Assembly (NCBI GenBank): GCA_020284085.1
Contig: JACEVL010000163.1
Location: forward strand, 1,770,761 to 1,834,760
DNA length: 64,000 nt
Source of the DNA: Aporrectodea caliginosa
Lineage: Eukaryota > Annelida > Clitellata > Crassiclitellata > Lumbricidae
Direction of reading: 5' to 3'
A program made the position numbers and the translations under genes. The notes below the pieces were generated by a model. That model was not told the origin of the DNA. It searched no databases and worked only from the letters and a program-made list of their open reading frames with translations. Positions 5,924-46,829 of the stretch are shown here, piece by piece (the stretch's first letter is position 1; each line of letters begins with the position of its first letter).

Positions 5924-7103
5924 CAGTGTTGTATCAATTACATTCTAAATGTAATTCAATTATAATTTCAATTACATGCTTGTAAATGTAATTGAATTAC
6001 AATTACAATTACATTCATTTCGGATATTTATATAGCGCCCCTTCAAGATTTCTACTCAGAGGCGCTCCCGACTACAGCGCGGACACTGAATCGGAGTTTC
6101 ACGCCGAAGCGCATGAGCAATTGCGAGTGAAGGACTTGCCCAGGGTCCCTACGCGGCGGCTTGAGGTGGATTCGAACCCGCAACCCTCCGGCTGCAAGGC
6201 ACCAAATATACCCCCTTGAGGTGGATTCGAACCCGCAACCCTCCGGCTGCAAGGCACCGAACATACCTCTACACCACCGCGCCCCACACAATTACAATTA
6301 CTTGATTGTGAAAGTAATTGAATTACAATTACATTTTGATTGTAATTCAATTACCAATTGCTTTTCAATTATTCATTTAAAATTGGCAAATGATCTAGAA
6401 TTTTTTCGATAACTTTTAATTTACTCTATTTTTAAACTGAAACATCCAATGGGCCAATGACCTGTAAATTGTAATATACACATTCAATTGTATTATAAGT
6501 TTGTCAGGTATCCAAAATACGATTTGCAATTATGATCCATTAAAACAAGTTAGAGTTTACTTGATTTTTAGTAGAAGTTTTTCAAAATGATAGTCTGTTA
6601 GAGAACTCAGTTGATTACGCCTGGGTGAGTGAGTCAATTCGTCCAGCAGTGCTAAAGAAACGCTCAACTGGAGCTGAAGATGGAAGCTCTGTTTTCTGTA
6701 GGCAGCCGCAGTAAGCTAGCTAAGAATGAGTGCATGACTGCATGGATAGTCTGAAGGTCAGCTCTTGCCCTTGAGGTCTATCAAAGTGTGCTGTAAGATT
6801 GTAAGAGGGGTGTAAGGAAAGAATAATGTTGACAATTATGTTGCCATGCAAACATAATGCAGAGCAGTTTATTCAATTAATCGGGTGGCCCGGGTCAACC
6901 TGGTAGGCTGGCATCTTTGCTGACTTTATGAAAGTAATTTGTAATTTATACTTCATTCAATTACAAATTACATGCAATATTGTAATTGAAATACAATTAC
7001 AATTACTGGACCTAAAATGTAATTCAATTACAATTACAATTACAGAACTTGTAATTCAATTACGTAATTCAATTACATGTATTTCAATTACTGAACAACA
7101 CTG
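5924..7103. mobile_element. Non-autonomous hAT element with GTAATCAC target duplication
   Basis: The ends are CAGTGTTGTATCAATTAC and the inverse CAGTGTTGTTCAGTAATT. Exact 8-bp direct repeats GTAATCAC lie at 5916-5923 and 7104-7111. Both ends are built from many copies of TGTAATTGAATTACAATT-like sequence. A second copy lies at 27445-28342. No transposase is visible. A SINE is nested inside at about 6023-6285. Confidence 0.9.
6023..6285 (-). repeat. tRNA-derived SINE with a duplicated head segment
   Basis: Read on the minus strand it begins GGGGCGCGGTGGTGTAGAGG, like a tRNA A box, followed by GGTTCGAATCC, a B box. The tail is AGGGGCGCTATATAAATA. The B-box segment (6159-6217) is repeated in tandem at 6218-6270. 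Related copies are at 34150-34380, 43841-43910 and 53316-53476. Confidence 0.8.
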
Positions 7104-8876: not shown

Positions 8877-9067
8877 GGCTAATAATAATCACAATTGCAA
8901 TCAATATAATAATTCTCACAATTTGTAACTCCACAATTTTTGTGGAGATACAAAAAGGCAATTTTCAGTAGCAACGCAAAATAGTGGTTCATGTAAGGAG
9001 AGTGACCCAACGTTCCCAAAGTGGAACACATTTGAAATCAGCTACGTTGCTCGTGAATAAAGCACTA

Positions 9068-9844
9068 CCATTGACAAATTTGATGTCTGTCATTTTGAAA
9101 CACACATTGGTTTTCACCGGATTCATCACATTCACTATGGCGAGTGAGCTCCCAAGTAAAACGTACGCCTCACGTACAAACGATCGACATACTCAGACCC
9201 AAAGACCTTATATATAACTAGACCGTATTAATGTAAGTAAGTAAGTCTGTTCTTTATTAAACGCTGGCAAATGCACGGCGCTGTACATACAAAGTTATCG
9301 AATAGTGGCGAAAAAGTTAGTTAATAGTAAACTAAATAAAAACACTATGGCCTAGCTAAGTAAGTAAGTAAGTTAAAAGTACGCCTAATGTACAAACGAC
9401 ATACTCAGACCCCACATACAGGCCCGAATTAATGTGTGGTGTTAAGTGTGCTGCAGCACTCGGTCCCGCAGTTTTGAGGTGTATGGTGGAACTTTTGTCA
9501 TCAGCGGGGGTACTTTGTAAAATAATCACAACACCGGAGCCCGCACTATCCTTAGGGCGGCACTGTCTACCAGTGTTGTCACTATTTAAACAATTAAATA
9601 GTATTAAATAGTATTTAAATACTTTATGACTATTGGTGCCACTATCTAAAATAGTCATGAAAAAGATCCTATTGAAATAGTATTTAAATAGTGTGCACCT
9701 ATTTACTATTTAGCTAAAAGTTTTCGTTAGGGTTATGGAATGGTTAAAAAAACCTAAAAGTAATAGTCAACCACCAGTCTGAAAAAAAATTTAAACTTTA
9801 CTTATGTAATTGTTTATTTATTATTATTAACTTTACACAACAAA
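9068..9844. repeat. Outer left arm of the large inverted repeat
   Basis: It matches 22095-22967 in inverse orientation. It contains two TAAG repeats (9231, 9355), two copies of ACATACTCAGACCC (9188, 9403) and, near 9574-9720, an AT-rich block beginning CAGTGTTGTCACTATTTAAA that resembles a small hAT-like end. Confidence 0.85.
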
Positions 9845-12250
9845 TGTATTTCAAAGCATCAACTAGCCTAAGTTCGCCACCTGAAATGAAATACTCAGAC
9901 CCTAACCATCCCAAAGCGTTTCACATGGCTTATTGCCCACCACAAGCACTACCGAATCTGATAGTCACTGGACCGTTTAAATGATTAGCGTCTTTGTGGT
10001 AGACGTTCAAACATCACAATAAAGTACCTTGTATTTCAAAGCATGAAATAGCCTAAGTTCGCCACCTGAAATGAAATACTCAGACCCTAACCATCCCAAA
10101 GCGTTTCACATGGCTTATTGTCCACCACAAGCAATACCGAATCTGATAGTCACTGGACCGTTTAAATTATTAGCGTCTTTGTGGTAGACGTTCAAACATC
10201 ACAATAAAGTACCTTGTATTTCAAAGCATGAAATAGCCTAAGTTAGCCACCTGAAATGAAATACTCAGACCCTAACCATTCCAAAACGTTTCACAAGGCG
10301 TAATGTCCACCACAAGCACTACCGAATATGATAGTCACTGGACCGTTTAAATGATTAGCGTCTCTTTGGTAGACGTTCAAACTTGCCATATAAGTGCCTT
10401 ATACTTCAAAGCATGAAATAGCCTAAGTTCGCCACCTGAAATGAAATACTCAGACCCTAACCATCCCAAAGCGTTTCACATGGCTTATTGCCCACCACAA
10501 GCACTACCTAATCTGATAGTCACTGAACCGTTTAAATTATTAGCGTCTTTGTGGTAGACGTTCAAACATCCCAATAAAGTACCATGTATTTCAAAGCATC
10601 AACTAGCCTGAGTTCGCCACCTGAAATGAAATACTCAGACCCTAACCATCCCTAAGCGTTTCACATGGTTTATTGCCCACCACAAGCACTACCTAATCTG
10701 ATAGTCACTGGACCGTTTAAATTATTAGCGTCTTTGTGGTAGACGTTCAAACATCACAATAAAGTACCATGTATTTCAAAGCATCAACTAGCCTGAGTTC
10801 GCCACCTGAAATGAAATACTCAGACCCTAACCATCCCTAAGCGTTTCACATGGTTTATTGCCCACCACAAGCACTACCTTATCTGATAGTCACTGGACCG
10901 TTTAAATTATTAGCGTCTTTGTGGTAGACGTTCAAACATTCCAAAAAAGTACCTTGTATTTCAAAGCATGAAATAGCCTAAGTTCGCCACCTGAAATGAA
11001 ATACTCAGACCCTAACCATCCCAAAGCGTTTCACATGGCTTATTGCCCACCACAAGCACTGCCGAATCTGATAGTCACTGGACCGTTTAAATGATTAGCG
11101 TCTTTGTGGTAGACGTTCAAACATCCCAATAAAGTGCTTTATACTTCAAAGCATGAAATAGCCTAAGTTCGCCACCTGAAATGAAATACTCAGACCCTAA
11201 CCATCCCTAAGCGTTTCACATGGCTTATTGCCCACCACAAGCACTACCTAATCTGATAGTCACTGGACCGTTTAAATTATTAGCGTCTTTGTGGTAGACG
11301 TTCAAACATCACAATAAAGTACCTTGTATTTCAAAGCATGAAATAGCCTAAGTTCGCCACCTGAAATGAAATACTCAGACCCTAACCATCCCTAAGCGTT
11401 TCACATGTCTTATTGCCCACCACAAGCACTACCGAATCTGATAGTCACTGAACCGTTTAAATTATTAGCGTCTTTGTGGTAGACGTTCAAACATCCCAAT
11501 AAAGTGCTTTATACTTCAAAGCATGAAATAGCCTACGTTCGCCACCTGAAATGAAATACTCAGACCCTAACCATCCCAAAGCGTTTCACATGGCTGATTG
11601 CCCACCACAAGCACTACCTAATCTGATAGTCACTGGACCGTTTAAATTATTAGCGTCTTTGTGGTAGACGTTCAAACATCCCAATAAAGTGCTTTATACT
11701 TCAAAGCATGAAATAGCCTACGTTCGCCACCTGAAATGAAATACTCAGACCCTAACCATCCCAAAGCGTTTCACATGGCTGATTGTCCACCACAAGCACT
11801 ACCGAATCTGATAGTCACTGAACCGTTTAAATTATTAGCGTCTTTGTGGTAGACGTTCAAACATCCCAATAAAGTGCTTTATACTTCAAAGCATGAACTA
11901 GCCTACGTTCGCCACCTGAAATGAAATACTCAGACCCTAACCATCCCAAAGCGTTTCACATGGCTGATTGCCCACCACAAGCACTACCTAATCTGATAGT
12001 CACTGGACCGTTTAAATTATTAGCGTCTTTGTGGTAGACGTTCAAACATCTCAATAAAGTACCATGTATTTCAAAGCATCAACTAGCCTGAGTTCGCCAC
12101 CTGAAATGAAATACTCCGACCCTAACCATCCCTAAGCGTTTCACATGGCTTATTGCCCACCACAAGCACTACCGAATCTGATAGTCACTGGACCGTTTAA
12201 ATGATTAGCGTCTTTGTTTTAGCCGTTCAAACTTGCCATATAAGTGCCTT
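9845..12250 (+). repeat. 185-bp satellite array, left arm (about 13 units)
   Basis: The unit marker GTATTTCAAAGCAT recurs at 9846, 10031 and 10216, giving a 185-bp period, and continues to 12250. Each unit holds TTCGCCACCTGAAATGAAAT, ACTCAGACCCTAACC, a CCACCACAAGCACTACC block and GGTAGACGTTCAAAC. Units differ by scattered substitutions and fall into subtypes (CATCAACTAGCC versus CATGAAATAGCC). There is no open frame. Confidence 0.97.
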
Positions 12251-13017
12251 GTCTATGCGATTATGTAGAAACGAAAGAGAAATAATGTGGTAGCCGAACC
12301 TATCGACACTTGTAGGATACATAGGCTACCGCTATACATTAATGTACAAGTAAATGAAAAATCAACACTATTGCTTAAGATTAGATCAGCAACTAAGGTC
12401 ATTAGAATACACAGTAACATATAGCTATACATCATAATACAGTATATCTTTCAGCGACTACATCCATTACATACCATCTACCCATCATGTTAGATATTTA
12501 CATAACAGCATGCAGTGCACATGCCTGCTGCCCATCAAGAGGTCAGTCAATTAGACATTAGGCAGCACATTTGTGCATCATAGTATTATTAGCAATATTA
12601 AAATAACAGAGTGCAGCTGTGGTTTGACCTCACTGAATATTTGACAACACATTTGTAGATATCAATCAAAATAACCGATAAAAACCAAAATTACAACAAT
12701 ATAATGCAATCGTGTATTCCGCATAAGCATTACAAAACGCCGGATACATAATATGCAGGTGCAATAAAAAGTTGAACTGTATTTTCACAGGATGAGCTGC
12801 CATATTGACCCCAGAGCCCAGAGACTCAATCCACACTGGCACAGTAGTGCACAAATAGCCAGAACGATTTTAGCTAGAGACAGCATTATACCGTAATTAT
12901 GTAAATATGTGAGGAACTAATAAATTCCATTAACCATTAGACACTACATTTCTTCAGATGCCAGTCACTTTCGCCCACTATGCCCTATGAGTATATCGAG
13001 GTGTAACCGTTCTTCTA
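12251..13017. other. Core of the inverted-repeat element, no gene recognised
   Basis: Only short frames without known domains occur. It lies downstream of the PHD exon on the minus strand, so it may contain the end of that gene. I cannot identify a terminal exon. Confidence 0.4.
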
Positions 13018-13452
13018 TAGAAGCATTTACTCTGTATCACAAGACTATGTTTACGTAACTGAAAACAAATGTTAAAATGCCGTCGACTTGTGTGAAAGAC
13101 GCACAGACACAGAAGCCATGAAGAAATTAATTTTTATCAGTTTCCTCTTGGACGAAAGCGAGAGGAGAAGCCGAGTGTTTGGGTTACAGCAGTAAATCGC
13201 AAGGAATGGCGCAAGGAATGGCGCGACCTGGATGGCGCCTTCATTCGGTCGCCATTCCTTGCGATTTACTGCTGTAATTCATTTACTCAGCTTCTCCTCT
13301 CGCTTTCGTCCAAGAGGAAACCGATTAAATTTAATTTCTTCGTCGTTTCTATGTCTGTTCGTACAATTTGTCACACAAGTCGACGGCATTTTAACATTTG
13401 TTTTCACTTACTTAAACATTGTCACGTGATCCAGAGTAAACGCTCCTATAGC
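13018..13452. mobile_element. Foldback (hairpin) element of about 435 bp
   Basis: Outer ends CTATAGAAGCATTTACTCTG and the inverse (CAGAGTAAACGCTCCTATAG) begin arms of about 200 bp. The arms include AAATGTTAAAATGCCGTCGAC and CTTGGACGAAAGCGAGAGGA in both orientations. The loop is near 13215-13240. No coding sequence is present. Confidence 0.85.
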
Positions 13453-13596
13453 AGAGTATAATGTTCACGAAGGATTATAATTTAATGACATTGAATTTCT
13501 TTTAACAGAATACACCATATTCTCAACATGCAGTAACATTCAGTAAGTTCAAATGAGCCATAATATGTTAGTTTATAACAATAACCTGTGAACTAC

Positions 13597-13765
13597 CTGG
13601 ATTAGAACATATTGGGCAGAGCCAGGGAATTCCTTTAATTTCGCGCAGTCTTTCTGCTGTAATTTTTACACACGTGACATGACACCAAGTCAAACAATAC
13701 GGTCTACTGCATTGCAACATTGATCCGGACGACGGACCATGACAAATACAATGCAGTTTGGGAGT
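13597..13765 (-). pseudogene. PHD-finger segment of the Ulp1/PHD gene
   Basis: Minus-strand coding sequence from 13765 to a donor CCAG|GTAGTTC at 13597. The residues LHCIC, GSMLQC, YCLTWCHVTC and WLCPIC supply all eight ligands of a C4HC3 PHD finger in canonical spacing. It is the continuation of the protease exon ending at 15865. The joint is exactly the 25-bp sequence duplicated on both sides of the 2.07 kb insertion at 13766-15839, so this part was cut off from its gene by that insertion. PHD fingers usually read histone H3 tails. Here a chromatin-targeting role for a transposon protein is inferred. Confidence 0.75.
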
Positions 13766-15839
13766 GATGTAAGGGATTTGGGAATTACAATAGTAGTAAT
13801 TGTAACGTAATCATTACTGAGATTTGACTAGAGGAATATTTAGACGGACAGACAACAGGACACTGACGGATACAGAGACGGACTAGCAGCGCACGCCTGC
13901 CAGCCCCACGTAGGGATGGTGACCGGATGAAGCGTCGATCAACCGCCGCCACGCGCCGCCTTCTGATGCCGCCTACTTGTCCATCATAAGTTCTACGATA
14001 AGTTACGCCCGCCTTGCAGTGAAATGAACCCGTCCATCTGGAAATGAACCGGTCCAGATAGAAGTTCTACAACGCGACGGACGGAAGGAGCGACACGGCG
14101 ACGACCAATAGTCAGGAAGGAAAGAAACATGGGGACACCGCCTACAACCCTTTCCACGAGACAAGAGTAACTATAAGATAGCCGAACACAGAGAGAAAAG
14201 TCGTTCTCTCGGTTTGGTGACTGACGCGATGTTTTGGTGCTCCTGATGAGGAGAGAGGAACGCTTGAGATTGACGAAGCCTGCTGAAGACAAGTGCTACC
14301 TGCAAGAGGCAGAGGACAAAGAGGACCGCAACGGAACGAGACGAGAGAAGCCGAGAGAAACCGAGGGAGAGAACGCAGTCAACCTCGTTAAAGATTACAG
14401 ACGACGATGCAGGCAATCTCTTTAGAATAAGAGCTAGTGACGACACAGATTTATAACTAGAAACTCGTACGCTTCATTGAGATAGACAACTCACTGCTAA
14501 AGACACTCAAGAGAGTCGAAGGAAGACAGACGCACGTCCGCTGATGAACTTTGATGAACGAGGAACAAGAGTGCAGACCGCTGACTCTCAATCTGATGAC
14601 ATGACAGCCGACTGACTGTCGACTACCAGGTAACGTTGCAGTAGTGTAATTCAAGGGTAATTAGTGCGTATTGACGATAGGCTATCCGCTGAATAGATAT
14701 TCTTAAGAGTCCGTAATTGACGAGTAGAAAAGAGGATCCCGGAGTGATCTTGCTGTAACGTCTTGATTGTATGAAAGTGATGAATATGAGGAGTGAATGA
14801 TCGTTATAAATTACTGTTTGTAATCATTGATTGTACGACATTGTGTAGAAGTTTGTTAGCGAATATACTCTGAAAATGACCTCCCAGTCTCTTGAACTGC
14901 TAACTAGCCGAGACATGATTGATAGCGAGGACATTAGGGCCACTACGAGTAAAGAAGTAAGATCGGAGATGAACCCCCTCACCATGGATAGACTGTTAGG
15001 CTCCATTGAAGCACTAGCCACGACGGTAGCGAGACAGGACGAGAAAGACAGAAGGAGACAGGAGGAGGACAGAAGGAGACAGGAGGAGGACAGAAGGAGA
15101 CAGGAGAGAACTGAAAGGATGATGGCTGAGGTAATTGCTGTATCCAGAGAGAGTAAGCAAGCTGCCTGGGAAAGTGAGAGAAGAACAATGGAAACGTTAC
15201 AGACAGTTTTAGACAGACAGGGTGATCTAGAGGCTGAGATGTATTCCGTAGATGAATGGACCGCTTACGATAGCCCAAATCGCGGCAGCCGACCTAATCC
15301 GTCTGGTTGCCCGGTTGACTTCAGACAGAAGTCCGCCCTTCCACTCAATTCAAACCCACCTTCGTCAGGACCCCAAGATGATTTTAGGCCTCCGATTCTG
15401 CGGAGAAGTGAACGGCTTAGACGCCTAAGGAAAGGGAATACGGGCCAGCCTGATAGGGAAAGTCTGAATGAAACCTTCAGTGATTTAGAGATTACTGAAC
15501 CCACCTATTCCTATCCAGGGACCTCCAGCGGTCACGAAGGACAATCCTGGCTTGAACCCCCAGGGTCCCCGGGTCCAGCACCCCGGCATGAGGAAGAAAG
15601 TAGTAAGTATGTATTGCCGCGTGGAAGCCAATTCCACGCGGCTGGCGACGAGGAATACCTGGACGGCGAAAGGGAGGGCTCCCTAGGGCATTACGACCCC
15701 AGGGGTGGGCCTAGCAACCCCATAGGCATAGCGACCGGCCTAACCTCTAGTTTGTCCAGGCGGCAAGGGACGTATGGGGCTATGGCGACGCGTGGAAGCC
15801 CACTCCACGTGGAAGCCAGCGCAGAAGCTGAAACCCCAG
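13766..15839 (+). mobile_element. 2.07 kb insertion with an exact 25-bp flanking duplication
   Basis: The 25 bases at 13741-13765 are repeated exactly at 15840-15864. The inserted sequence starts GATGTAAGGGATTTGGG, similar to the start of an LTR or leader. It has about 1.1 kb without coding potential, then a gag-like frame from 14876 that is cut at the right junction. It has no poly-A and no second LTR. It looks like the 5' part of a retroelement joined into the gene. The duplication is far longer than the 4-6 bp left by LTR integrases. Confidence 0.7.
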
Positions 15840-15949
15840 GACAAATACAATGCAGTTTGGGAGTATTAAAGATTTTTTCACCTCTTTTATTGGCTACAGT
15901 CTTCGGAAATTCTGTAAATGTTTCGTTTAGCATGCATTGGCGAAAGTGA
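14876..15949 (+). CDS. Gag-like coiled-coil protein, 3' truncated
   Basis: ATG at 14876, 357 codons. Residues 50-115 are strongly charged and heptad-like, with three tandem copies of DRRRQEE. They are followed by a proline/serine-rich stretch and two related RGSxxH segments. The layout (N-terminal coiled coil, then disordered region) is that of the N-terminal part of many Ty3/gypsy Gag proteins. There is no capsid domain or zinc knuckle, because the frame leaves the insertion at 15839. The last 36 residues are antisense to the Ulp1 exon. Could equally be an unrelated structural protein; similarity to a named Gag was not shown. Confidence 0.45.
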   Translation: MTSQSLELLTSRDMIDSEDIRATTSKEVRSEMNPLTMDRLLGSIEALATTVARQDEKDRRRQEEDRRRQEEDRRRQERTERMMAEVIAVSRESKQAAWESERRTMETLQTVLDRQGDLEAEMYSVDEWTAYDSPNRGSRPNPSGCPVDFRQKSALPLNSNPPSSGPQDDFRPPILRRSERLRRLRKGNTGQPDRESLNETFSDLEITEPTYSYPGTSSGHEGQSWLEPPGSPGPAPRHEEESSKYVLPRGSQFHAAGDEEYLDGEREGSLGHYDPRGGPSNPIGIATGLTSSLSRRQGTYGAMATRGSPLHVEASAEAETPGQIQCSLGVLKIFSPLLLATVFGNSVNVSFSMHWRK

Positions 15950-16454
15950 CTGGCAAGCAATGTGACCGTGTACAAGTGCCCTGTTGGGTCGCGCTTCAAG
16001 CAGCACGATAGTGCCGCGGCTGCAGCATAGAAGCCGCAAATTCTTGTACCGGCTTTTTGCTGCTGAAAGTATCTGATGTGAAATGTGATGTCATCACTAC
16101 TGTAATCTTCACGAAGCAACCAGGACACTTGTACCTTGGTCGAATCATTAACGAAATTATATATGCTATCGTAAATGTATACGTCTGAGGTGGATTCGCC
16201 GAATACGTTGGTTGCGCATACCCAGTGGTCGCCAATGCTCAATATTTGCACGAATCTCTGTCGTCCGACGCTTTCGAATTTCGGTATGGATGTTCCTTTC
16301 TCACAGGGGCCGAAAACGCTGTCTTGTAAGCCAGCCACCCGTCTGCCAAAATGCGTCTTCAGCAGCTTCATCCACGCATCAATTTCATTTGAGCCTATTT
16401 CGGTAATATAATTGAATGCAATGTCAGCCACTTCGATGGTTTTCGATGTCTTTC
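15865..16454 (-). pseudogene. Ulp1-like cysteine protease exon
   Basis: A splice acceptor (TTTAACTTTCAG) at 16455 opens the exon. One nucleotide of phase joins it exactly to the exon ending at 16833. The protein has the His-Asp-Gln/Cys layout of the C48/Ulp1-adenain protease fold: FVQILSIGDHWVCATN (catalytic His), VYIYDSIY (Asp), then QQQKAGTRICGFYAAAAAL (Cys in RICG). It is about 190 residues, typical for the fold. Upstream, NEIDAWMKLLKTHFGRRVAGLQ resembles the lead-in seen in invertebrate mobile-element Ulp1 domains. The reading frame is interrupted at 15864 by the 2.07 kb insertion and resumes with the PHD finger at 13765. Ulp1 enzymes normally cleave SUMO or similar tags; the substrate here is unknown. 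Confidence 0.72.
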
Positions 16455-16832
16455 CTGAAAGTTAAACACAGTTTTGATTGTAATGAATTTCATGAAATTC
16501 AATTCGATGAAGCTATGTATATGTATATAGGGTAGAGTGGGGCAAACCGATCCCTATTGCATTTCACTAAAATTTATACTGATCTAGTCTGTTCACTTGC
16601 ATGCATGTATGTGTACTTCAGTTACAATAGGCATTTATGAAGTGCGAATTTTGGTTGTGTGCTAGAAATTTCTTTGTCACATTTCGCTCAATATCACTCT
16701 ATATGAATGTCCATGCAAACAAAGTCACGAATATACACATATTGCTACTATATTATGCCAGGAAGTTTTTACTTATCAGTTTATTACCGACGCTAGTTTA
16801 ATTCATAGAAACTACTTAAGTTACTTACGTAC

Positions 16833-17613
16833 CTGGACTTAACTTAATGCGATCGAAATCTTTATCTTCAATGTTTTCAGCCGATTTCTCCGGACCTGGA
16901 CTTAACTTAATGTGATCGAAATCTTTATCTGCAATGCTTTCAGCCGATTTCTCAGGACCTGGACTTAACTTAATGTGATCTAAATCTTTATCATCATTGT
17001 TTTCAGCCGATTTCTCAGGTTCCAGTTCTTGGGCTGGATCTGTATTCGATTTCCTATTCTTCAATACACGTCTGCTGAAGTCAGTGTCAGAATACTTCGT
17101 ACGCCTTCTTTTCGGTTTCCACTGTTCTTCCTCCTCATGAAGGAAGGAGCATTGTTTCTTCCTTTTCAACCCAATATTAATTGGCTCCGGCAATTTCTTT
17201 GCTTTAACAGCACCTCTAACTCTTTTCAGCTGTTCACAAAGAATTTCTCTTGGGCGTAATTTCGTCCTGCCCATTAGAGTGCCTCTCTTTAGAGTTCGAA
17301 AGTATGATTCAACTTTTGCATTAGTCATAGAAGGTGTTGACTGTTCCATTGAAGTTTTGCGTAGAGCAAGGTTATACATTGGTCGAGACCACAATGGAAA
17401 TAAATGCATGAAATCCTTTAAGCACTTGAAGCCGGCAGGCGAGTACAAATCGTTCGATGTGCCACGTGACTTGTCGTCAGTCAGATCTGTTTCCGGAATG
17501 TCCTTAAGTGCATTAGCGAAAAACAGAGTGAAAGGGGATTTCTTTATAAGAGTGGTCTTTGTCAAGAAAGCAGAGATTTTCTTCTCGGCTTCAGCAGTGC
17601 TATGACTTTCTGT
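16833..17613 (-). pseudogene. Transposase-like C-terminal exon with three tandem modules
   Basis: An exon between acceptor TGTTATTTACAG (17614) and donor CCAG|GTACGT (16833), open throughout. Near 17290-17340 it has NLALRKTSMEQSTPSMTNAK followed by VESYFRTLK. This tryptophan/asparagine-rich block with N-A-x-V-E-x-Y-F-x-x-L-K is one I associate with the C-terminal part of several uncharacterised transposon proteins. A basic stretch KPKRRRTK follows. Then come three copies of a roughly 24-residue module, EKSAEN/S-x2-DKD-x-D-x-IKLSPG (16840-16995). The exons that should precede it are missing: the right satellite arm begins at 17884. The gene therefore lost its 5' half when the arm was formed. 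Confidence 0.6.
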
Positions 17614-17883
17614 CTGTAAATAACATCAATGTTCATCATATCGTTGCAACTACAATCTCATTGAGAGTGGTTTCTATAAGTGTGTTGGCCTACACAATGG
17701 ACTGGTTTTGAGAAAAGGAAAGAATTTATTAGAAATAAGTGGAAATAGAAGAAAAATATGAATATCATTTGGACACTCACTTCAGCATGTTTGTGCTCAT
17801 TCCACAGAAACCGAACTGCTCTTACTGTTTTAACCTAAAAGCAGCTCTTAAGTGCATCAGATTCCATAGACAGGCTATGACTG
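17614..17883. other. Intron remnant next to the right satellite arm
   Basis: No coding similarity. It ends at TAGACAGGCTATGACT where the satellite begins. The inner border of the left array has TTGTCTATG, giving a short inverse match at the two inner junctions. Confidence 0.4.
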
Positions 17884-20800
17884 AGTATTTCATTTCAGGT
17901 GGCGAACTTAGGCTATTTCATGCTTTGAAATACAAGGTACTTTATTGGAATGTTTGAACGTCTACCACAAAGACGCTAATAATTTAAACGGTCCAGTGAC
18001 TATCAGATTAGGTAGTGCTTGTGGTGGGCAATAAACCATGTGAAACGCTTAGGGATGGTTAGGGTCTGAGTATTTCATTTCAGGTGGCGAACTTAGGCTA
18101 TTTCATGCTTTGAAATACAAGGTACTTTATTGGAATGTTTGAACGTCTACCACAAAGACGCTAATAATTTAAACGGTCCAGTGACTATCAGATAAGGTAG
18201 TGCTTGTGGTGGGCAATAAACCATGTGAAACGCTTTGGGATGGTTAGGGTCTGAGTATTTCATTTCAGGTGGCGAACTTAGGCTATTTCATGCTTTGAAA
18301 TACATGGTACTTTATTGGGATGTTTGAACGTCTACCACAAAGACGCTAATCATTTAAACGGTTCAGTGACTATCTGATTAGGTAGTGCTTGTGGTGGGCA
18401 ATAAGACATGTGAAACGCTTAGGGATGGTTAGGGTCTGAGTATTTCATTTCAGGTGGCGAACTTAGGCTATTTCATGCTTTGAAATACAAGGTACTTTAT
18501 TGGGATGTTTGAACGTCTACCACAAAGACGCTAATAATTTAAACGGTCAAGTGACTATCATATTCGGTAGTGCTTGTGGTGGACATTACGCCTTGTGAAA
18601 CGTTTTGGAATGGTTAGGGTCTGAGTATTTCATTTCAGGTGGCGAACTTAGGCTATTTCATGCTTTGAAATACAAGGTACTTTATTGGAATGTTTGAACG
18701 TCTACCACAAAGACGCTAATAATTTAAACGGTCCAGTGACTATCAGATAAGGTAGTGCTTGTGGTGGGCAATAAGCCATGTGAAACGCTTTGGGATGGTT
18801 AGGGTCTGAGTATTTCATTTCAGGTGGCGAACTTAGGCTATTTCATGCTTTGAAATACAAGGTACTTTATTGGAATGTTTGAACGTCTACCACAAAGACG
18901 CTAATAATTTAAACGGTCCAGTGACTATCAGATTAGGTAGTGCTTGTGGTGGGCAATAAACCATGTGAAACGCTTAGGGATGGTTAGGGTCTGAGTATTT
19001 CATTTCAGGTCAGGCTAGTTGATGCTTTGAAATACATGGTACGATGTTTGAACGTCTACCACAAAGACGCTAATAATTTAAACGGTCCAGTGACTATAAG
19101 ATTCGGTAGTGCTTGTGGTGGGCAATAAGCCATGCTTTGAAATACATGGTACTTTATTGGTGATGTTTGAACGTCTACCACAAAGACGCTAATAATTTAA
19201 ACGGTCCAGTGACTATCAGATTAGGTAGTGCTTGTGGTGGGCAATAAACCATGTGAAACGCTTAGGGATGGTTAGGGTCTGAGTATTTCATTTCAGGTGG
19301 CGAACTCAGGCTAGTTGATGCTTTGAAATACATGGTACTTTATTGGGATGTTTGAACGTCTACCACAAAGACGCTAATAATTTAAACGGTTCAGTGACTA
19401 TCAGATTAGGTAGTGCTTGTGGTGGGCAATAAGCCATGTGAAACGCTTAGGGATGGTTAGGGTCTGAGTATTTCATTTCAGGTGGCGAACTCAGGCTAGT
19501 TGATGCTTTGAAATACATGGTACTTTATTGGGATGTTTGAACGTCTACCACAAAGACGCTAATAATTTAAACGGTCCAGTGACTATCAGATTAGGTAGTG
19601 CTTGTGGTGGGCAATAAACCATGTGAAACGCTTAGGGATGGTTAGGGTCTGAGTATTTCAGGTGGCGAACTCAGGCTAGTTGATGCTTTGAAATACATGG
19701 TACTTTATTGGGATGTTTGAACGTCTACCACAAAGACGCTAATAATTTAAACGGTTCAGTGACTATCTGATTAGGTAGTGCTTGTGGTGGGCAATAAGCC
19801 ATGTGAAACGCTTTGGGATGGTTAGGGTCTGAGTATTTCATTTCAGGTGGCGAACTTAGGCTATTTCATGCTTTGAAGTATAAGGCACTTATATGGCAAG
19901 TTTGAACGTCTACCAAAGAGACGCTAATCATTTAAACGGTCCAGTGACTATCATATTCGGTAGTGCTTGTGGTGGACATTACGCCTTGTGAAACGTTTTG
20001 GAATGGTTAGGGTCTGAGTATTTCATTTCAGGTGGCGAACTTAGGCTATTTCATGCTTTGAAATACAAGGTACTTTATTGTGATGTTTGAACGTCTACCA
20101 CAAAGACGCTAATAATTTAAACGGTCCAGTGACTATCAGATTCGGTATTGCTTGTGGTGGACAATAAGCCATGTGAAACTTTGGGATGGTTAGGGTCTGA
20201 GTATTTCATTTCAGGTGGCGAACTTAGGCTATTTCATGCTTTGAAATACAAGGTACTTTATTGTGATGTTTGAACGTCTACCACAAAGACGCTAATCATT
20301 TAAACGGTCCAGTGACTATCAGATTCGGTAGTGCTTGTGGTGGGCAATAAGCCATGTGAAACGCTTTGGGATGGTTAGGGTCTGAGTATTTCATTTCAGG
20401 TGGCGAACTTAGGCTATTTCATGCTTTGAAATACAAGGTACTTTATTGGAATGTTTGAACGTCTACCACAAAGACGCTAATAATTTAAACGGTCCAGTGA
20501 CTATCAGATAAGGTAGTGCTTGTGGTGGGCAATAAACCATGTGAAACGCTTAGGGATGGTTAGGGTCTGAGTATTTCATTTCAGGTGGCGAACTTAGGCT
20601 ATTTCATGCTTTGAAATACAAGGTACTTTATTGGAATGTTTGAACGTCTACCACAAAGACGCTAATAATTTAAACGGTCCAGTGACTATCAGATAAGGTA
20701 GTGCTTGTGGTGGGCAATAAACCATGTGAAACGCTTAGGGATGGTTAGGGTCTGAGTATTTCATTTCAGGTGGCGAACTTAGGCTATTTCATGCTTTGAA

Positions 20801-22094
20801 GTATAAAGCACTTTATTGGGATGTTTGAACGTCTACCACAAAGACGCTAATCATTTAAACGGTCCAGTGACTATCAGATTCGGTAGTGCTTGTGGTGGGC
20901 AATAAGCCATGTGAAACGCTTAGGGATGGTTAGGGTCTGAGTATTTCATTTCAGGTGGCGAACTTAGGCTATTTCATGCTTTGAAATACAAGGTACTTTA
21001 TTGGGATGTTTGAACGTCTACCACAAAGACGCTAATAATTTAAACGGTCCAGTGACTATCATATTCGGTAGTGCTTGTGGTGGACATTACGCCTTGTGAA
21101 ACGTTTTGGAATGGTTAGGGTCTGAGTATTTCATTTCAGGTGGCGAACTTAGGCTATTTCATGCTTTGAAATACAAGGTACTTTATTGTGATGTTTGAAC
21201 GTCTACCACAAAGACGCTAATCATTTAAACGGTCCAGTGACTATCAGATTCGGTAGTGCTTGTGGTGGGCAATAAGCCATGTGAAACGCTTTGGGATGGT
21301 TAGGGTCTGAGTATTTCATTTCAGGTGGCGAACTTAGGCTATTTCATGCTTTGAAATACAAGGTACTTTATTGGAATGTTTGAACGTCTACCACAAAGAC
21401 GCTAATAATTTAAACGGTCCAGTGACTATCAGATTAGGTAGTGCTTGTGGTGGGCAATAAGCCATGTGAAACGCTTAGGGATGGTTAGGGTCTGAGTATT
21501 TCAGGTGGCGAACTCAGGCTAGTTGATGCTTTGAAATACATGGTACTTTATTGGGATGTTTGAACGTCTACCACAAAGACGCTAATCATTTAAACGGTCC
21601 AGTGACTATAAGATTCGGTAGTGCTTGTGGTGGGCAATAAGCCATGTGAAACGCTTAGGGATGGTTAGGGTCTGAGTATTTCATTTCAGGTGGCGAACTT
21701 AGGCTATTTCATGCTTTGAAATACAAGGTACTTTATTGTGATGTTTGAACGTCTACCACAAAGACGCTAATCATTTAAACGGTCCAGTGACTATCAGATT
21801 CGGTATTGCTTGTGGTGGACAATAAGCCATGTGAAACGCTTTGGGATGGTTAGGGTCTGAGTATTTCATTTCAGGTGGCGAACTTAGGCTATTTCATGCT
21901 TTGAAATACAAGGTACTTTATTGTGATGTTTGAACGTCTACCACAAAGACGCTAATAATTTAAACGGTCCAGTGACTATAACATTCGGTAGTGCTTGTGG
22001 TGGGCAATAAGCCATGTGAAACGCTTTGGGATGGTTAGGGTCTGAGTATTTCATTTCAGGTGGCGAACTTAGGCTAGTTGATGCTTTGAAATAC
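17884..22094 (-). repeat. 185-bp satellite array, right arm (about 23 units)
   Basis: The same unit as 9845-12250 but inverted (GGTGGCGAACTTAGGCTA, GGGTCTGAGTATTTCATTTC, GAACGTCTACC). Some units carry deletions, for example near 19015-19140 where partial units are fused, and units lacking TTTCATTTC near 19650 and 21500. This arm is about 10 units longer than the left one. Confidence 0.97.
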
Positions 22095-22967
22095 ATTTGT
22101 TGTGTAAAGTTAATAATAATAAATAAACAATTACATAAGTAAAGTTTAAATTTTTTTTCAGACTGGTGGTTGACTATTACTTTTAGGTTTTTTTAACCAT
22201 TCCATAACCCTAACGAAAACTTTTAGCTAAATAGTAAATAGGTGCACACTATTTAAATACTATTTCAATAGGATCTTTTTCATGACTATTTTAGATAGTG
22301 GCACCAATAGTCATAAAGTATTTAAATACTATTTAATACTATTTAATTGTTTAAATAGTGACAACACTGGTAGTAAACTGAAAGAAGAGGCCCAACAACG
22401 AGAGAAGTGGCGACGTCGGACATTTGAACCTGCCTAACAGGCAGAGAACCACAAGAAGAACACTGGTAGACAGTGCCGCGCTAAGGATAGTGCGGGCTAC
22501 GGTGTTGTGATTATTTTACAAAGTACCCCCGCTGATGACAAAAGGTCCACCACACACCTCAAAACTGCGGGACCGAGTGCTGCAGCACCCTTAACACCAC
22601 ACATTAATTCGGGCCTGTATGTGGGGTCTGAGTATGTCGGTTGTACATTAGGCGTACGTTTAACTTACTTACTTACTTAGCTAGGCCATAGTGTTTTTAT
22701 TAAGTTTACTATTAACTAACTTTTTCGCCAATATTCGATAACTTTGTATGTACAGCGCCGTGCATTTGCCAGCGTTTAATAAAGAACAGACTTACTTACT
22801 TACATTAATACGGTCTAGTTTTATATATAAGGTCGTTGGGTCTGAGTATGTCGATCGTTTGTACGTGAGGCGTACGTTTTACTTGGGAGCTCACTCGCCA
22901 TAGTGAATGTGATGCCCCTTAGTGAAAACCAATGTGTGTTTCAAAATGACAGACATACAAATTTGAC
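22095..22967. repeat. Outer right arm of the large inverted repeat
   Basis: The inverse of 9068-9844, colinear apart from a 96-bp insertion at 22374-22469. Homology fades outside CAAATTTGACCATA near 22967. Confidence 0.85.
22374..22469. mobile_element. 96-bp insertion with 11-bp duplication in the right arm only
   Basis: The sequence AACACTGGTAG at 22363-22373 is repeated at 22459-22469, and the left arm has it once. The insertion therefore happened after the two arms existed. The insert is GA-rich with no feature I recognise. Confidence 0.75.
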
Positions 22968-23235
22968 CATACACAATCACAATAAACACAGTTCATTCCA
23001 AATGTGCAATAAAAATAATTAATTGTCACGTATCTGTAACATACATTAATTTTCAATATTTACGAATAAAAATGTCAATTTTTTTTGTATTTGCATCATA
23101 ATTATAATTATTATTTACCAAAACAGACTCGAAATCAAAGTAAATAAACACGCCTCCATCGTTGGTCAAGTCAATGAATATTTATGAGATGACTTATAGT
23201 CTGTTTCACTGCGACCAGAGGAGTTTTAATAATAT

Positions 23236-23257
23236 GTTCCACTTTGGGAACGTTGTT
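23236..23257. repeat. Third copy of the piggyBac-like end motif
   Basis: ATATGTTCCACTTTGGGAAC followed by GTTG matches the motifs at 7209 and 9009. It stands directly after the receptor stop codon on the minus strand. Its partner end is not evident. Confidence 0.6.
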
Positions 23258-27444: not shown

Positions 27445-28342
27445 CAGTGTTGTATCAATTACATTGCAAATGTAATTCAATTATAATTGCAATTACATGC
27501 TTGTAAATGTAATTGAATTACAATTACAATTACTTGATTCTGAAAGTAATTGAATTACAATTACATTTTGAATGTAATTCAATTACCAATTACTTTTCAA
27601 TCATTCAGGACTTTAAAATTGGCAAACGATTTAGAATTTTTTTTCAATAATTTTTAATTTACTCTATTTTTAAACTAAAATATCCAATGGGCCAAAGGTT
27701 GCAAATTGTAATCTATATATTCAATTGTATTGTAAGTTTGTCAAGTATCCAAAATACAATTTACAATTATGATCCATTAAAACAAGGTAGAGTTTATTTG
27801 ATTTTAGGAGTAGAAGTTTTTCAAAATGTAGTCTGTTAGAGAACTTAGTTGATTGCGCCTGGGTGAGTGAGTCAATAATGTCTAGCAGTGCTAAATGGAC
27901 GCTCAACTGGAGCTGAAGATGGAAGCTCTGTTATCTGCAGCCGCAGTAAGCTGACTAAGAATGAGTGCATGGCTGCATGGATAGTCTGATAGTGATGGTC
28001 AGCCCTTGCCCTTGGGTCTATCAAAGTGTGCTGTAAGATTGTAAGAGGGTGTAAGGATAGAATAATGATGACAATTATGTTGCCATGCAATCATAATGCA
28101 GAGCAGTTAAGTTTATTCAATTAAAATGGGTGGCCCAGGTCAACCCAGCAGGCTAGCATCTTTGCTGACATTATGAAAGTAATTTGTAATTTACACTTCT
28201 TTCAATTACAAATTACATGCAATATTGTAATTGAAATACAATTACAATTACTGGACTTAAAATGTAATTCAATTACAATTACAAAACTTGTAATTCAATT
28301 ACGTAATTCAATTACATGTATTTCAATTACTGAACAACACTG
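27445..28342. mobile_element. Second copy of the GTAATTGAATTAC-type hAT element
   Basis: Same ends as 5924-7103. The 8-bp repeats CCACTAGG are at 27437-27444 and 28343-28350. It lacks the SINE present in the first copy. The inner sequence (for example GGTGGCCC...GTCAACC) aligns along the whole length. Confidence 0.93.
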
Positions 28343-38524: not shown

Positions 38525-41500
38525 GCAATGAAGCCAGGCATCGAGACACAACTCAATGAACAGTTGATCAGGCAGCACGGTGTGAAATACACACAATTAT
38601 TAACGGTTGAGATGGTAAAATTGATACCAAACATTGACGATGTGTATAACGATAATGTGGCCCCTAACACCATCACGACCACAGCTTACTTTCGGAGTAA
38701 TGCAGCACCCATTACCAATACGGCAGACATCGAAGGAGTTGTGCAGGCGGCCAAAGATGAAGTCTTAAAGCACCTTGAGTCGTGATCAGGCTGGAGACTA
38801 AAGCGAGTTATGGCGTTAGATATTTGTATCGCAAAATATCAACCATTTCGAGGTAAAAGCTATTTCCCAACACCTAAATACCTACCTCCTCGCACAGTCA
38901 TAAATGTGAAGAATGAGGACAACCGCTGCTTTGAACGGGCAGTATTATCAGCTATATACCCAGTAGAAAATAATCCTCAGCGCCCAACTAAATAACATGC
39001 CCACCTCAACAAGCTGGATTTTACTGGAATCAAATTTCCAGTGATGGTTACAGATATCGATAAATTTGAACGACAGAATCTAGCCGTATCGGTTATCGTG
39101 TTTGGGTGGAACAAGGGGTTGTATCCGGCTCATGTATCAGATCTGAACAGAGCCCACAATGTCGACCTTCTACTACTATCCGACGGAGAAAAACAGCACT
39201 ATGTTTGGATCAAGAACTTGGCCCGCATGCTTTTTAAAAACAGCGGCTACGAACACAAGAAGCATCCATGCCGCCGTTGTCTCCATGTCTTCTCTGGGCA
39301 AGACCTGCAAGACGTCTGATCAAATCAAGGACTGCCGCGGTTTTAGCAATAAGCCACAGAGGTTTGTGGTGCCTGAAGAAGGCAAAATATCCTCAAATTT
39401 AAGAATTACCGCAAACAGATGCAAGTTCCATATATTATTTATGCTGACTTTGAAGCACTAAATGTCCCAGTAGAAAATGAAGAACCCTAAGAGACTAAGA
39501 CCAGACTCATTGCTGAGCAGAAACCATGCAGCTTCTGCTATATAGTAGTTCAAAGCGATGGACAGTCCAACGAACCTGTGCTCTATCGTGGTGAGAATGC
39601 GGTGGAAGTGTTCCTTCATAGCTTACAAGGTCAGTTAGCTAATATACAAGAAATCTGGCTAATATCGCGGAGATGGTCATGACAGCGACCGATTACCAAT
39701 CATTCCGTCAGGCTACCAAGTGCCATATCTGCGGAGATGCATTAGAAGCAGACAAAGTTCGCGATCATTGCTATATAACTGGTAAATACCGGGGAGCAGC
39801 TCATAATGAGTGCAACCTCAAACTTCGCATATATCCAGACAAATGTAAAGTATCCGTGGTCTTTCGCAACTTACGCGGTTACGACGGCCATTTTATTATG
39901 CAGGCAATGAGTGGTAATGAAGCTGAGAAATCACCTGTATTCCAAATAATATGGAGAAGTATATGACATTTAACCTAGGTCAGTTCCAGTTCATCGACAG
40001 CCTCCAGTTTCTAAACAGTTCTTTGGATAAGTTGTCAAGCAATCTATCACTAGATGATCTGAAAGTCACAGCGACTCATAGTAAAAAGCTAGATTTATTG
40101 AGACGCAAAGGCGTTTATCCCTATGAATACATAGATGGCTACAATCGTTTCGAAGAAGGCCAGCTCCCACCCAAAAGAGGCATTCTATCGCAAACTCACC
40201 AGAGAAGACATTTCAGATGTCGATTACCAACACGCCCAACGAGTATGGAAGGAGTTTGACTGTAAAACCATGGGTGACTACCACGACCTGTATCTCCGCA
40301 CGGATGTGCTTCTACTAGCTGATGTCTTCGAGACTTTCAGAGCCACATCGATGAAATACTACAGTCTAGACCCGGCGAACTACATCAGCCTACCTGGAAT
40401 GACTTGGGATGCATTGTTGAAAACGACAAATGTCGAGTTCGAACCATTGCCTGATATCGACATGCATTTATTCTTTGAAATAGGTCTTCGAGGCGGAGTA
40501 TCGATGGTATCCAAGAGATTTGCAAAAGCCAACAATCCACAATGCCCTGACCACGATACCACGAAGCCAAACAACTGGATTATGTATCTGGATGCAAATA
40601 ACCTGTACGGATGGGCTATGCAACAAATGCTTCCAGTAGGTGGATTCACATGGTGTGAAATTAATGAAAATTTTCTAAACGAAATCCTGGGAACACCGGA
40701 CGAGGCCCCCGAAGGCTTTCTACTCGAGGTGGACCTTGAATACCCGGAACATCTCCACGACGCCAACAACGACTATCCATTAGCCCCAGAAACCCTACCT
40801 GTTCGAGAAGATTGGTTGAGCGACTATCAGCACTTGCTCGTGGACAAGTTGGGAGGCAAGTTCACAGAGTGTGTAAAGTTGATGCCCAGCCTACGAAAGA
40901 AGGAACGATATGTGGTTCATTACAGAAATCTCAAACTCTATCACTCGTAGGGCATGCGAGTTATCAAAATTCATCGTGCCATCAAATTTCGACAGGAAGC
41001 CTGGATGGCTCCATATATCGAGATGAATACAAATCTGAGAGCCAAGCCCACATCCGACTTTGAGAAGGACTTCTTGAAACTGGCAAACAATGCAGTGTTC
41101 GGGAAGACAATGGAGATTTTTGCGTAGGCGTATTAGGGTGGATCTAGTGGCTGGAACACAAGAGGACAAACTTCGTAAATTGATCGCCGACCCAGTCTAT
41201 CAATCGCACCGCATCTTCAATGGCGGACTTGCTGCAATTTATAGCAGAAAAAGCAGACTGAGGTTGAATAGACCAGTCAATGTCGGCCAGGCAGTTCTAG
41301 AACTGTCCAAACCTCTGGTACAACGATGTTAAAGCGCGGTACGGCGATAAAGCTCAGCTTTTGTACACCGACACTGACAGTTTACTGTTCGAAGTGGAAA
41401 CTCCGAATCCATGCGAAGATATATTGGTAAATAAAACTTCGTACGATCTCAGCGAATATCCTCGAGATAGTCCATACTTTGATTCCATAAACAAGAAAGT

Positions 41501-41903
41501 GGTTGAAAAATTCAAAGTTGAATGCAATGGAGTTCCAATAACCGAATTCGTGGGATTTCGCCCGAAGATGTATTCCATCCTACAATCTACTGGATCTCAG
41601 ATTCGAAAGGCAAAAGGCGTTCAGAGCACATTTGTTAAGAAAGATCTACATCACGAAATGTACCAGGAATGCCTGTTTCAGCATAAGCTGATGCGGCACA
41701 CACAGGTTGTAATTCGAAGTCACGAGCACCAGATTGGTGTGCACGAGCAGAATAAGATATCCCGTTCTCCACTGGATACAAAACAGTGGATAGCGGGCGA
41801 TGGGATAACAACAAGGGCATACGGCCACTTCAGTATTTGTAAAAAGACAAAATTTCAAATGGTAGCGGAATATCTCAACGAACTTTTAGATGAATTGGGT
41901 TGA
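38525..41903 (+). pseudogene. Protein-primed family B DNA polymerase relic (adintovirus/Polinton type)
   Basis: A series of plus-strand frames follows the order of the PolB of adintovirus-like and Polinton elements: an N-terminal region with INVKNEDNRCFERAVLSAIY (38900), a CRRC zinc motif (39270), a CHICGD..VRDHCYITG zinc/HNH-like stretch (39730), FRNLRGYDGHFIMQ of the exonuclease (39870), DLYLRTDVLLLADVFETFR (40300), the polymerase A region YLDANNLYGWAMQ (40590), LANNAVFGKTME (41085) and the C motif YTDTDSLLFEV (41365). At least seven stops or frameshifts (for example at 38783, 38993, 39317 and 40948) make it non-functional. It would have copied the element's DNA. The stop at 41903 overlaps the end of the integrase relic on the other strand. 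Confidence 0.85.
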
Positions 41904-42780
41904 GCAATCTCTCTCGTGGAAGCTCTGTGCCTATAGGTACCACGAGCAATTCCTCGCGAACAAATCCACGGCCAGGTCCATCAACTAGAGGATACGATGC
42001 GGGCTGGTCAGCTTGTTGGACAACGTTTGAAATAGCGTGTATGGTAAGCGAGCAGCTAGGGTCTGTAGCCCGTCTGTTACCGCCCTCGAGCTCCCCAGGT
42101 GCATATAAGTAACGGACCAAGAATGGCCTCTTTCAGGCCAACAGCACGACGAGCTGGAAGAGAGGATTTTTGTTCTATTCTATCAGCCTTGATCGCTTTA
42201 GCCGGCTTCATGCCAAGCAAACGCGTTGGTTCATTGTTTAGTGCAGCCACAAGCTCAGGCAGCTGGCGAACCCATTCAGCCGACCTTTCTGACGAACCTC
42301 TGGCAGCAAGGAGTAACTCCTGAGCATATGTATGGGACAACAAATAAAGGCTCTGACAATGTCCGGTTGAATCGTTCAACGATGCCTTGCTGGCGATGAT
42401 TTCCAACTTCTTCACGCCTCACTTGAACATCGTTACATCGTGCTTCGTCAGCAATGGTTTAATGGAGCCCATAAATTCGCGACCAGGATCGACCTGGAGC
42501 AGTCGAGGCCAAGTCAATGGACCCAGTTTATAAATTCAGCTTAAAGCGGCTCCGACTTCACAAGCACTTTTATCGATCAAAGGCTCAGCTTCTTTATATC
42601 GTGAGGTGACATCAACCACGGTCAGAGCAATTTTGTACTTTGTAAGGCCAACTTTATCATTAGGAAGATACAGCAGATCAGCATGATGAACGGTGTTAGT
42701 TAGGCCTATCTTCATCGAGCATTGGACGAGGAATGTGTCGTGGTACAGGCTGATAAATTTGCCACACGGCTTGTTTCTTC
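41875..42780 (-). pseudogene. Retroviral-type integrase relic of the same element
   Basis: Minus-strand fragments show VWQIYQPVPRHIPRP (42770), HADLLYLPNDK and LTVVDVTSRYKEAEPLIDK (first catalytic Asp region), PRLLQVDPGREFMGSIK (second Asp), QQGIVERFNRTLSEPLF (Glu), then VRYLYAPGELEGG and DGPGRGFVREELLVVP of the C-terminal domain. This is the DDE integrase found with PolB in Polintons and adintovirus-like elements. Stops and shifts near 42420 and 42535 inactivate it. It is transcribed towards PolB and the two ends overlap by 29 bp. No capsid genes are visible, so only part of the element remains. Confidence 0.83.
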
Positions 42781-42959
42781 AATCATTTGCGAGTTTCAGC
42801 CTGCCTTTCACCTTGATGCGATAGAAAGCTAACCTGCAGCATGCAAGAGAAAATATTATGATATGCCTTAACATGTCTATGGGTGTCCGTATCCATGCAT
42901 GCATGAGCAATATCGTACATGATTACATCATGACTATTAATTGTCAAGGTTCTAGTAAC

Positions 42960-43411: not shown

Positions 43412-43429
43412 GAACAGAACAGAACAGTA

Positions 43430-45690: not shown

Positions 45691-45699
45691 ACACTCAGT

Positions 45700-46500: not shown

Positions 46501-46577
46501 ATTGGTGATTTCCATTCAGGCATGCATCAACTGTGTACCCTGTAACCTTTCCTTTCCTATCACTCTGCTCCAGCGTC

Positions 46578-46790
<213 letters not shown>

Positions 46791-46829
46791 AATATAGTAC
46801 GTAAACGAAAATTATCATCAACCGTGAAT

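What the first reader, a model, noticed from the sequence alone, without database searches (positions are those of the whole stretch)
9068..22967. Large inverted-repeat element whose arms are satellite arrays
Two inverted arms of 3.2 and 5.1 kb each consist of a unique outer part plus a tandem array of the same 185-bp unit (about 13 and 23 copies), facing each other across a 5.6 kb core with a Ulp1/PHD gene. Satellites inside terminal repeats could spread by transposition and change length by unequal exchange. The arms already differ by about ten units and one 96-bp insertion. The core gene lost its 5' half where the right arm begins, so an arm may have been copied by inverted duplication.
Basis: partly seen in the sequence, partly recalled or inferred. 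Interest (0 to 1): 0.85.

Follow-up and report, generated by a model that had tools for sequence, protein, structure and literature searches.

The report
Jumping gene with satellite-filled ends
This is a recently active DNA transposon whose two mirror-image ends each carry a tandem array of a 185-base repeat, so the repeats move around the genome with it; a beetle transposon of the same design is already described, so it is a rich new example of a known kind.

Summary
The structure is real. A 13,874-bp element (9083-22956) lies between perfect 9-bp target-site duplications. Its arms are 762/861-bp outer parts plus arrays with 13 and 24 starts of a 185-bp unit. The same layout recurs in this 1.1-Gb genome: 9 of 15 annotated places have both inverted arms, and 4 of those 9 have perfect 9-bp duplications. 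It is a transposon family, not an assembly error or a centromeric satellite.

The core gene encodes a DDE-type transposase end, a protease-like domain with an Ulp1-type H-D-Q-C pattern, and a PHD finger. Sibling copy C3270 keeps the gene's 5' part; the window copy lost it by deletion at the array border, not by inverted duplication of an arm. Arrays travel in unit order and gain or lose whole units. Some outer arms are recombinant.

Closest known: Rehavkus (Mutator group), with 9-bp duplications, PHD finger and, in a beetle element, 164-bp satellite arrays in the inverted termini. Direct sequence comparison was not possible. A relative in this genome has an unrelated 190-bp array in the same position.

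The parts
9074..9082 (.). left copy of the 9-bp target-site duplication ACAAATTTG
   Evidence: read directly
9083..9844 (+). outer part of the left arm (gene 3' side, type without the 96-bp block); terminus ATGTCTGTCA
9845..12252 (+). left array, 13 units of 185 bp; first unit 182 bp
12253..13567 (.). 3' part of the core, no assigned coding sequence; matches five other young copies (in C1077 only its last 276 bp and a 167-bp inverted piece)
13568..13810 (-). open frame with PHD finger (PF00628, E 1.1e-6)
13780..15835 (.). secondary insertion flanked by a 40-bp repeat of target sequence; splits the protease-PHD frame in this copy
15691..16461 (-). open frame with the protease-like region (putative H, D, Q, C of an Ulp1-type peptidase near 16222-16233, 16162-16173, 16057-16065, 16033-16044); its last part lies in the insertion
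16825..17625 (-). open frame with the transposase end motif NAKVESYF (17299-17322)
17626..17880 (-). last core stretch before the deletion border; border identical in C1959, shared CTGAGT at the join
17881..22095 (-). right array, 24 unit starts (TRF 6.9 + 16.1 copies)
22096..22956 (-). outer part of the right arm (gene 5' side, type with the 96-bp block near 22374-22469)
22957..22965 (.). right copy of the 9-bp target-site duplication ACAAATTTG
   Evidence: read directly

Best explanation
It is a defective copy of a recently active, probably Rehavkus-type (Mutator-group) DNA transposon. Its long terminal inverted repeats consist of an outer part that carries the true termini and an inner tandem array of 185-bp units. 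Shown: it inserted with a 9-bp duplication; related copies sit at unrelated sites; arrays travel with the element in unit order and differ by whole units; copies have lost the 5' side of the gene to different extents, down to arms-only (foldback-like) elements of which three carry clean 9-bp duplications. Inferred: a copy with a complete gene supplies a DDE transposase that acts in trans on the termini of defective copies. Internal deletions probably arise when the gap left by excision is copied back incompletely and the break is rejoined inside the array. The arrays may add transposase-binding or chromatin sites; this is not shown.
For: 9-bp duplications exactly at the termini in 4 of 9 two-armed copies: C162, C142, C33, C1103. 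Flanks otherwise unrelated. Core identity of 98-100% between young copies in most stretches. Gene with conserved D441, D511, C558, H561 in 6 of 6 aligned sequences, PHD finger, and end motif, protease-like region and PHD finger in one frame in relatives P0023 and P0025. Nested 5' borders: C3270; C1634, C1077 and C2253; C162 and C1959; C414; none in C142, C33 and C1103. Window left array and C1959 right array: 11 unit pairs in order at 99.5-100% with 2 and 3 unmatched units. Relative C383 with the same 10-bp termini, inverted arms and its own arrays.
Against: 5 of 9 two-armed copies, and C383, have no duplication; four of the five have altered tips, C1959 has clean tips and still none. No copy with the whole gene was seen: C3270 ends at its contig start. 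Pfam finds no MULE, rve or other transposase model above its cut-off, the DDE profile has no PDB hit, and the structure models were too poor to use. Copies sharing a deletion border (C162/C1959; C1634/C1077/C2253) could also owe it to conversion between copies. The excision-repair step is inference; the C1634 border shows no such overlap and the C414 border was not resolved.
Confidence: 0.85

Rival explanations
1. Inverted duplication: one satellite arm was copied in inverted orientation over the 5' half of the gene in the window copy.
For: Gene 5' part is missing exactly where the right array begins. Right-array units 10-13, 16 and 18 match left units 1-6 in order at 98.9-100%, so some unit blocks were shared between the arms.
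Against: C3270 has the same 5'-side arm and array next to the longer gene. The two outer arms of the window are of different types, each matched in other copies, which a recent copy of one arm would not give. The whole-array alignment of the two window arrays scores negative.
Confidence: 0.06
2. Satellite first: a pre-existing satellite array was invaded or captured by the transposon, and the arrays are passengers from elsewhere.
For: The C383 family carries an unrelated unit in the same position, so the array sequence is not fixed in the lineage.
Against: The 150 listed unit matches lie on 11 contigs that also hold arm sequence. Arrays are in inverted orientation in both arms and the first unit is 181-182 bp in 18 of 18 arrays with two or more units. 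73 of 223 matches were not listed, and unassembled satellite cannot be excluded.
Confidence: 0.05
3. Assembly artefact: the inverted arms were produced by misjoining repeats.
For: C897 has 5,000 N in its 10-kb stretch with one arm; C1959, C2253, C1634 and C3270 lie on contigs under 24 kb; five copies lack duplications.
Against: Nine places share the layout, the window contig is 4.68 Mb, and the window flanks carry the same 9-mer exactly at both termini.
Confidence: 0.03

Closest known systems
Rehavkus DNA transposons, above all Rehavkus-1_TC of Tribolium castaneum with satellite TCsat23 (passages of PMC10218199 and PMC6446971)
   Same: 9-bp duplications; PHD finger in the transposase; single-gene element of about 10 kb; short arrays of a 164-bp satellite in both inverted termini of the beetle element.
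   Different: Unit 185 bp, not 164 bp; 13 and 24 units in the window against mostly five and eight in the beetle; listed Rehavkus TIRs are 26-400 bp and the minisatellite is described as lying before the 3' TIR; a protease-like domain is not mentioned in the passages seen. No sequence comparison with a Rehavkus protein was possible.
Tetris, a foldback transposon of Drosophila virilis with TIR-220 repeats (passages of PMC4079207)
   Same: Long TIRs with an outer domain plus internal tandem repeats of similar unit length; duplications of 8-10 bp; assigned to the Mutator superfamily by its authors.
   Different: Tetris copies have no coding capacity; here a gene is present. TIR-220 also forms longer stand-alone arrays; none was seen for the 185-bp unit in the listed matches.
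Drosophila FB/FB-NOF and Galileo (recalled; Galileo also in passages of PMC4079207)
   Same: Foldback layout, tandem repeats in long TIRs, arms-only copies.
   Different: [quoted passage not shown] FB units are much shorter (recalled).
KAONASHI and other ULP-carrying plant MULEs (passage of PMC2528002)
   Same: A Mutator-group element with an Ulp-type cysteine protease domain.
   Different: KI-MULEs are non-TIR with the domain in reverse orientation to mudrA; here it is in line with the transposase, followed by a PHD finger, inside very long TIRs.

Membership tests
Rehavkus | 9-bp target-site duplication | tested here: met
   perfect 9-mers at the termini in 4 of 9 two-armed copies, window included; none in the other 5
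Rehavkus | PHD finger in the transposase | tested here: met
   PF00628 E 1.1e-6, above cut-off, in the window frame; fused to the upstream domains in relatives P0023 and P0025
Rehavkus | minisatellite or satellite at the termini | tested here: met
   arrays in both arms; published for Rehavkus-1_TC
Rehavkus | TIR length 26-400 bp (table in PMC6446971) | tested here: inconclusive
   outer parts 762 and 861 bp, arms 3.2 and 5.1 kb, longer than the table; the 9.5-kb beetle element with arrays in its termini may be counted differently there
Rehavkus | transposase sequence related to Rehavkus proteins | not testable with these tools
   no Repbase protein at hand
Mutator superfamily (MULE) | target-site duplication of 8-11 bp | tested here: met
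   9 bp in 4 of 9 two-armed copies; range from PMC6446971
Mutator superfamily (MULE) | DDE catalytic residues | tested here: inconclusive
   D441, D511 and a CxxH at 558-561 invariant in 6 of 6, candidate E in NAKVESYF; no Pfam transposase above cut-off and no usable model; that CxxH is a MULE hallmark is recalled
Foldback-type elements (structural class) | long TIRs with internal tandem repeats, including copies with little or no middle | tested here: met
   C142, C33 and C1103 have arms and no core match
Ulp1-like (clan CE) cysteine protease | catalytic H, D, Q, C in that order | tested here: met
   H 22, D 21, Q 23, C 23 of 23 aligned sequences; assignment of these residues recalled. 5 of the 26 hits, mostly short, were left out (P0003, P0028-P0031)
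Ulp1-like (clan CE) cysteine protease | significant profile or fold match | tested here: not met
   no Peptidase_C48 in Pfam; three PDB profile hits with E up to 10, a deubiquitinase first (0.13) and an Ulp1-like SUMO protease third (1.8), none significant; the genome search with PF02902 did not complete

The most novel reading that the evidence does not exclude
In this transposon lineage a nucleosome-length tandem array inside each terminal repeat is a working part and not a passenger. Sister families keep an array in the same place while its sequence is replaced (185 bp here, unrelated 190 bp in C383, 164 bp in the published beetle element), and the transposase's PHD finger and protease-like domain act on chromatin formed over the array. 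The lineage would then be a renewable source of new satellites.
Probability: 0.12. Interest if true: 0.75.

Novelty: new member of a known kind. Interest (0 to 1): 0.45.

Why it matters
How satellites arise and disperse is a long-standing question. Here one genome offers a young family in which arrays can be followed unit by unit between copies, a nested series from a long gene to arms-only elements, mosaic arms, and a sister family with an unrelated array in the same place. That makes the idea that terminal repeats breed and spread satellites testable by comparing copies and alleles. It also suggests a protease-like domain in a DDE-PHD transposase. The principle itself is already in print for Rehavkus-1_TC and Tetris.

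Tried and rejected
Considered and set aside (all recalled, none tested by sequence): KDZ/Zisupton, the P superfamily, Helitrons with tandem repeats; the 9-bp duplications, PHD finger and long TIRs fit Rehavkus better. Tried without result: structure prediction of the protease-PHD frame alone and of the DDE frame with six sequences, both too poor, so no fold search was run; scan of viral contigs (no relative); PDB profile with the DDE alignment (no hit); Pfam for a transposase or Ulp1 (none above cut-off); arrays in the short loci of other relatives L034, L036-L039 (no long-period array; these loci reach only about 1.5 kb to either side); a paper search with Ulp1, Mutator, transposase, PHD finger and terminal inverted (0 papers held all five). 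A 12-mer shared by unit and outer arm (ATACTCAGACCC) is weak: 11 of 300 shuffles reached 12 or more. Neighbouring units were more alike than shuffled order (lag-1 p < 0.05) in 6 of 13 arrays, in neither window array. Identical units are about equally rare within one array (14 of 1259 pairs), between the two arms of an element (17 of 1010) and between elements (222 of 16259), so no general homogenisation within elements was seen.

Full report
What is there. Self-comparison and TRF confirm two inverted arms with arrays of one 185-bp unit at 9845-12252 and 17881-22095. The element runs from 9083 to 22956. Both termini read ATGTCTGTCA, and the 9-mer ACAAATTTG lies directly outside each. By these coordinates the left arm is 3,170 bp and the right arm 5,076 bp. 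The outer parts are 762 and 861 bp and match at 96.4% over 498 bp and 100% over 278 bp around one extra block in the right arm.

It is a mobile family. The window lies on contig C162 of a 1.098-Gb assembly of an unnamed organism. A 533-bp query, nearly all outer arm, gave 56 matches; the tool calls its counts lower bounds. I annotated 15 places: the window and 14 other contigs. Nine have both arms in inverted orientation: C162, C1959, C1077, C142, C2253, C414, C33, C1103, C1634 (one arm of C2253 is interrupted, one of C1103 is shortened and has no array of its own). C3270, C1237 and C897 show one arm; in C3270 the other side lies beyond the contig start, and the C897 stretch holds 5,000 N. C372 and C114 are arm fragments without units. 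C534 is an old, diverged copy with two units. C3010, found through the unit, is a diverged small copy with units in both orientations and arm pieces. Flanks of different places share only pieces of 93-288 bp at 77-84% among hits over 80 bp. Perfect 9-bp duplications exist in C162, C142, C33 and C1103. The other five two-armed copies have none; four of them show altered tips at one or both ends and C1959 does not. I cannot say whether these five were rearranged after insertion or are assembly damage.

The satellite belongs to the element. One unit gave 223 genome matches; the 150 listed fall on 11 contigs, and arm sequence was found on all 11. The 73 unlisted matches were not seen. In 18 of 18 arrays with two or more units the first unit is 181 or 182 bp long while most others are 185 (a nineteenth array has one unit). 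First units resemble each other more (98.4%) than they do other units (95.2%). The outer edge of the array is thus fixed while the inside varies.

The gene. The window core holds on the minus strand a frame with NAKVESYF (16825-17625), a protease-like frame (15691-16461) and a PHD frame (13568-13810). In five sibling copies the last two are one 264-aa frame. In the window they are split by a 2,056-bp insertion with a 40-bp repeat of target sequence. C3270 carries a 603-aa frame with DATGSV and VVTDFS. Four database relatives, P0005-P0008, and the C383 frame share D441, D511, C558 and H561 with it. P0023 and P0025 show the end motif, the protease-like region and the PHD finger in one frame. In 23 aligned sequences the putative protease residues are H in 22, D in 21, Q in 23 and C in 23; five of the 26 hits, mostly short, were left out. 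A profile of this region had three PDB hits with E up to 10: a deubiquitinase first (0.13) and an Ulp1-like SUMO protease third (1.8), suggestive but not significant. The PHD finger is significant. No Pfam transposase model was matched above its cut-off.

Loss of the 5' end. In C3270 the array begins near position 2921, outside the 603-aa frame (233-2041). C1634, C1077 and C2253 are joined to the array inside that frame, at C3270 position 574. The window and C1959 are joined about 1.15 kb further in, with the identical border sequence. C414 is cut further still, and C142, C33 and C1103 have no core match. P0005-P0008 continue across the C1634 border, so the longer form is ancestral. The window border shares CTGAGT between core and unit; the C1634 border shows no such overlap; for C414 the comparison failed because the script did not find the pre-border piece in the window. 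Identical borders at different sites suggest that deleted forms were themselves mobilised, although conversion between copies could also spread a border; the arms-only copies with clean 9-bp duplications are the stronger evidence for movement in trans. C1077 also lost part of the other side of the core. Incomplete copying after excision is my inference, from general knowledge of cut-and-paste transposons.

Arms and arrays change. Two outer-arm types exist. The type with the 96-bp block is on the gene's 5' side in 6 of 7 copies where that side can be told (C162, C1077, C2253, C414, C1634, C3270; not C1959). The type without it is on the 3' side in 4 of 6 (C162, C1077, C2253, C1959; not C414, C1634). 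C414_L and C1634_L begin as the 3' type and continue as the 5' type; C1959_L has 5'-type positions and then lacks the block. Limits of that table: 96 of its 109 columns are the block itself, the seven rows used to define the types are uniform by construction, and gaps count as the 3' type, so the fragments C372, C114 and the shortened C1103_L are not evidence in their inner part. Window left array and C1959 right array align in order as 11 unit pairs at 99.5-100%, with 2 and 3 unmatched units. Window right units 10-13, 16 and 18 match left units 1-6 in order at 98.9-100%, although the alignment of the two whole arrays scores negative: a block shared between arms, not two equal arrays. Against general homogenisation, identical units are about equally rare within arrays, between arms and between elements.

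A sister family. Relative C383 (52% over the protease-PHD frame; 68% over a DDE stretch) has the same 10-bp termini, outer arms matching at 84% over 415 bp, and inverted arrays of a 190-bp unit, 7.0 and 11.5 copies, with no match to the 185-bp unit at E up to 1. Its DDE frame also runs straight out of its array. No duplication was found at its ends.

Known systems. Passages of PMC6446971 list Rehavkus with 9-bp duplications, PHD finger, TIRs of 26-400 bp and a minisatellite before the 3' TIR. [quoted passage not shown] Passages of PMC4079207 describe Tetris with TIR-220. A passage of PMC2528002 describes ULP-carrying plant MULEs. In the passages seen of PMC13359780 Rehavkus serves as MULE outgroup. 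I saw passages only, none of these papers whole. The element meets the tested Rehavkus features except TIR length (inconclusive); sequence comparison could not be done. I file it as a probable new Rehavkus-type member with foldback structure: interesting as a system for satellite origin, not new in kind.

Noticed in passing
window 13780-15835: Secondary 2,056-bp insertion in the core with a 40-bp repeat of target sequence and a 366-aa plus-strand frame overlapping it (14849-15949); identity unknown, genome search not answered.
   Followed up: partly
window 43424-45678; L042:4362-5000: Another tandem array, 197-bp unit (2.1 + 8.9 copies); a 198-bp array in L042 looks by eye like its reverse complement. 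No inverted arms longer than 64 bp were found in 40000-52000.
   Followed up: partly
window 13011-13455: This core stretch matches its own reverse complement at 84% over 445 bp, a palindrome inside the element.
   Followed up: no
window 9210-9357: 16 further genome places match only this part of the outer arm, 121-148 bp at 89-93%: a short dispersed repeat or remnants of an older relative.
   Followed up: no
window 9008-9032 and 23231-23255: A 25-bp stretch outside the element recurs in inverted orientation on the other side, 24 of 25 bases; perhaps an older surrounding repeat.
   Followed up: no
L019:1604-1938: An 87-bp tandem repeat lies inside the 603-aa frame of C3270, giving a repeated peptide before the conserved part.
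   Followed up: no
window 6288-7103 and 27520-28342: Direct pair of a dispersed repeat, 90% identical over 837 bp.
   Followed up: no
G000:C383:1497465-1497719 and G000:C61:3573396-3573650: Two more places with the 68% DDE match and open frames of 364 and 227 aa, probably further copies of the C383 family; not fetched.
   Followed up: no
L040:22-759: A 152-bp tandem array (4.9 copies) lies just outside the left end of the C383 element.
   Followed up: no
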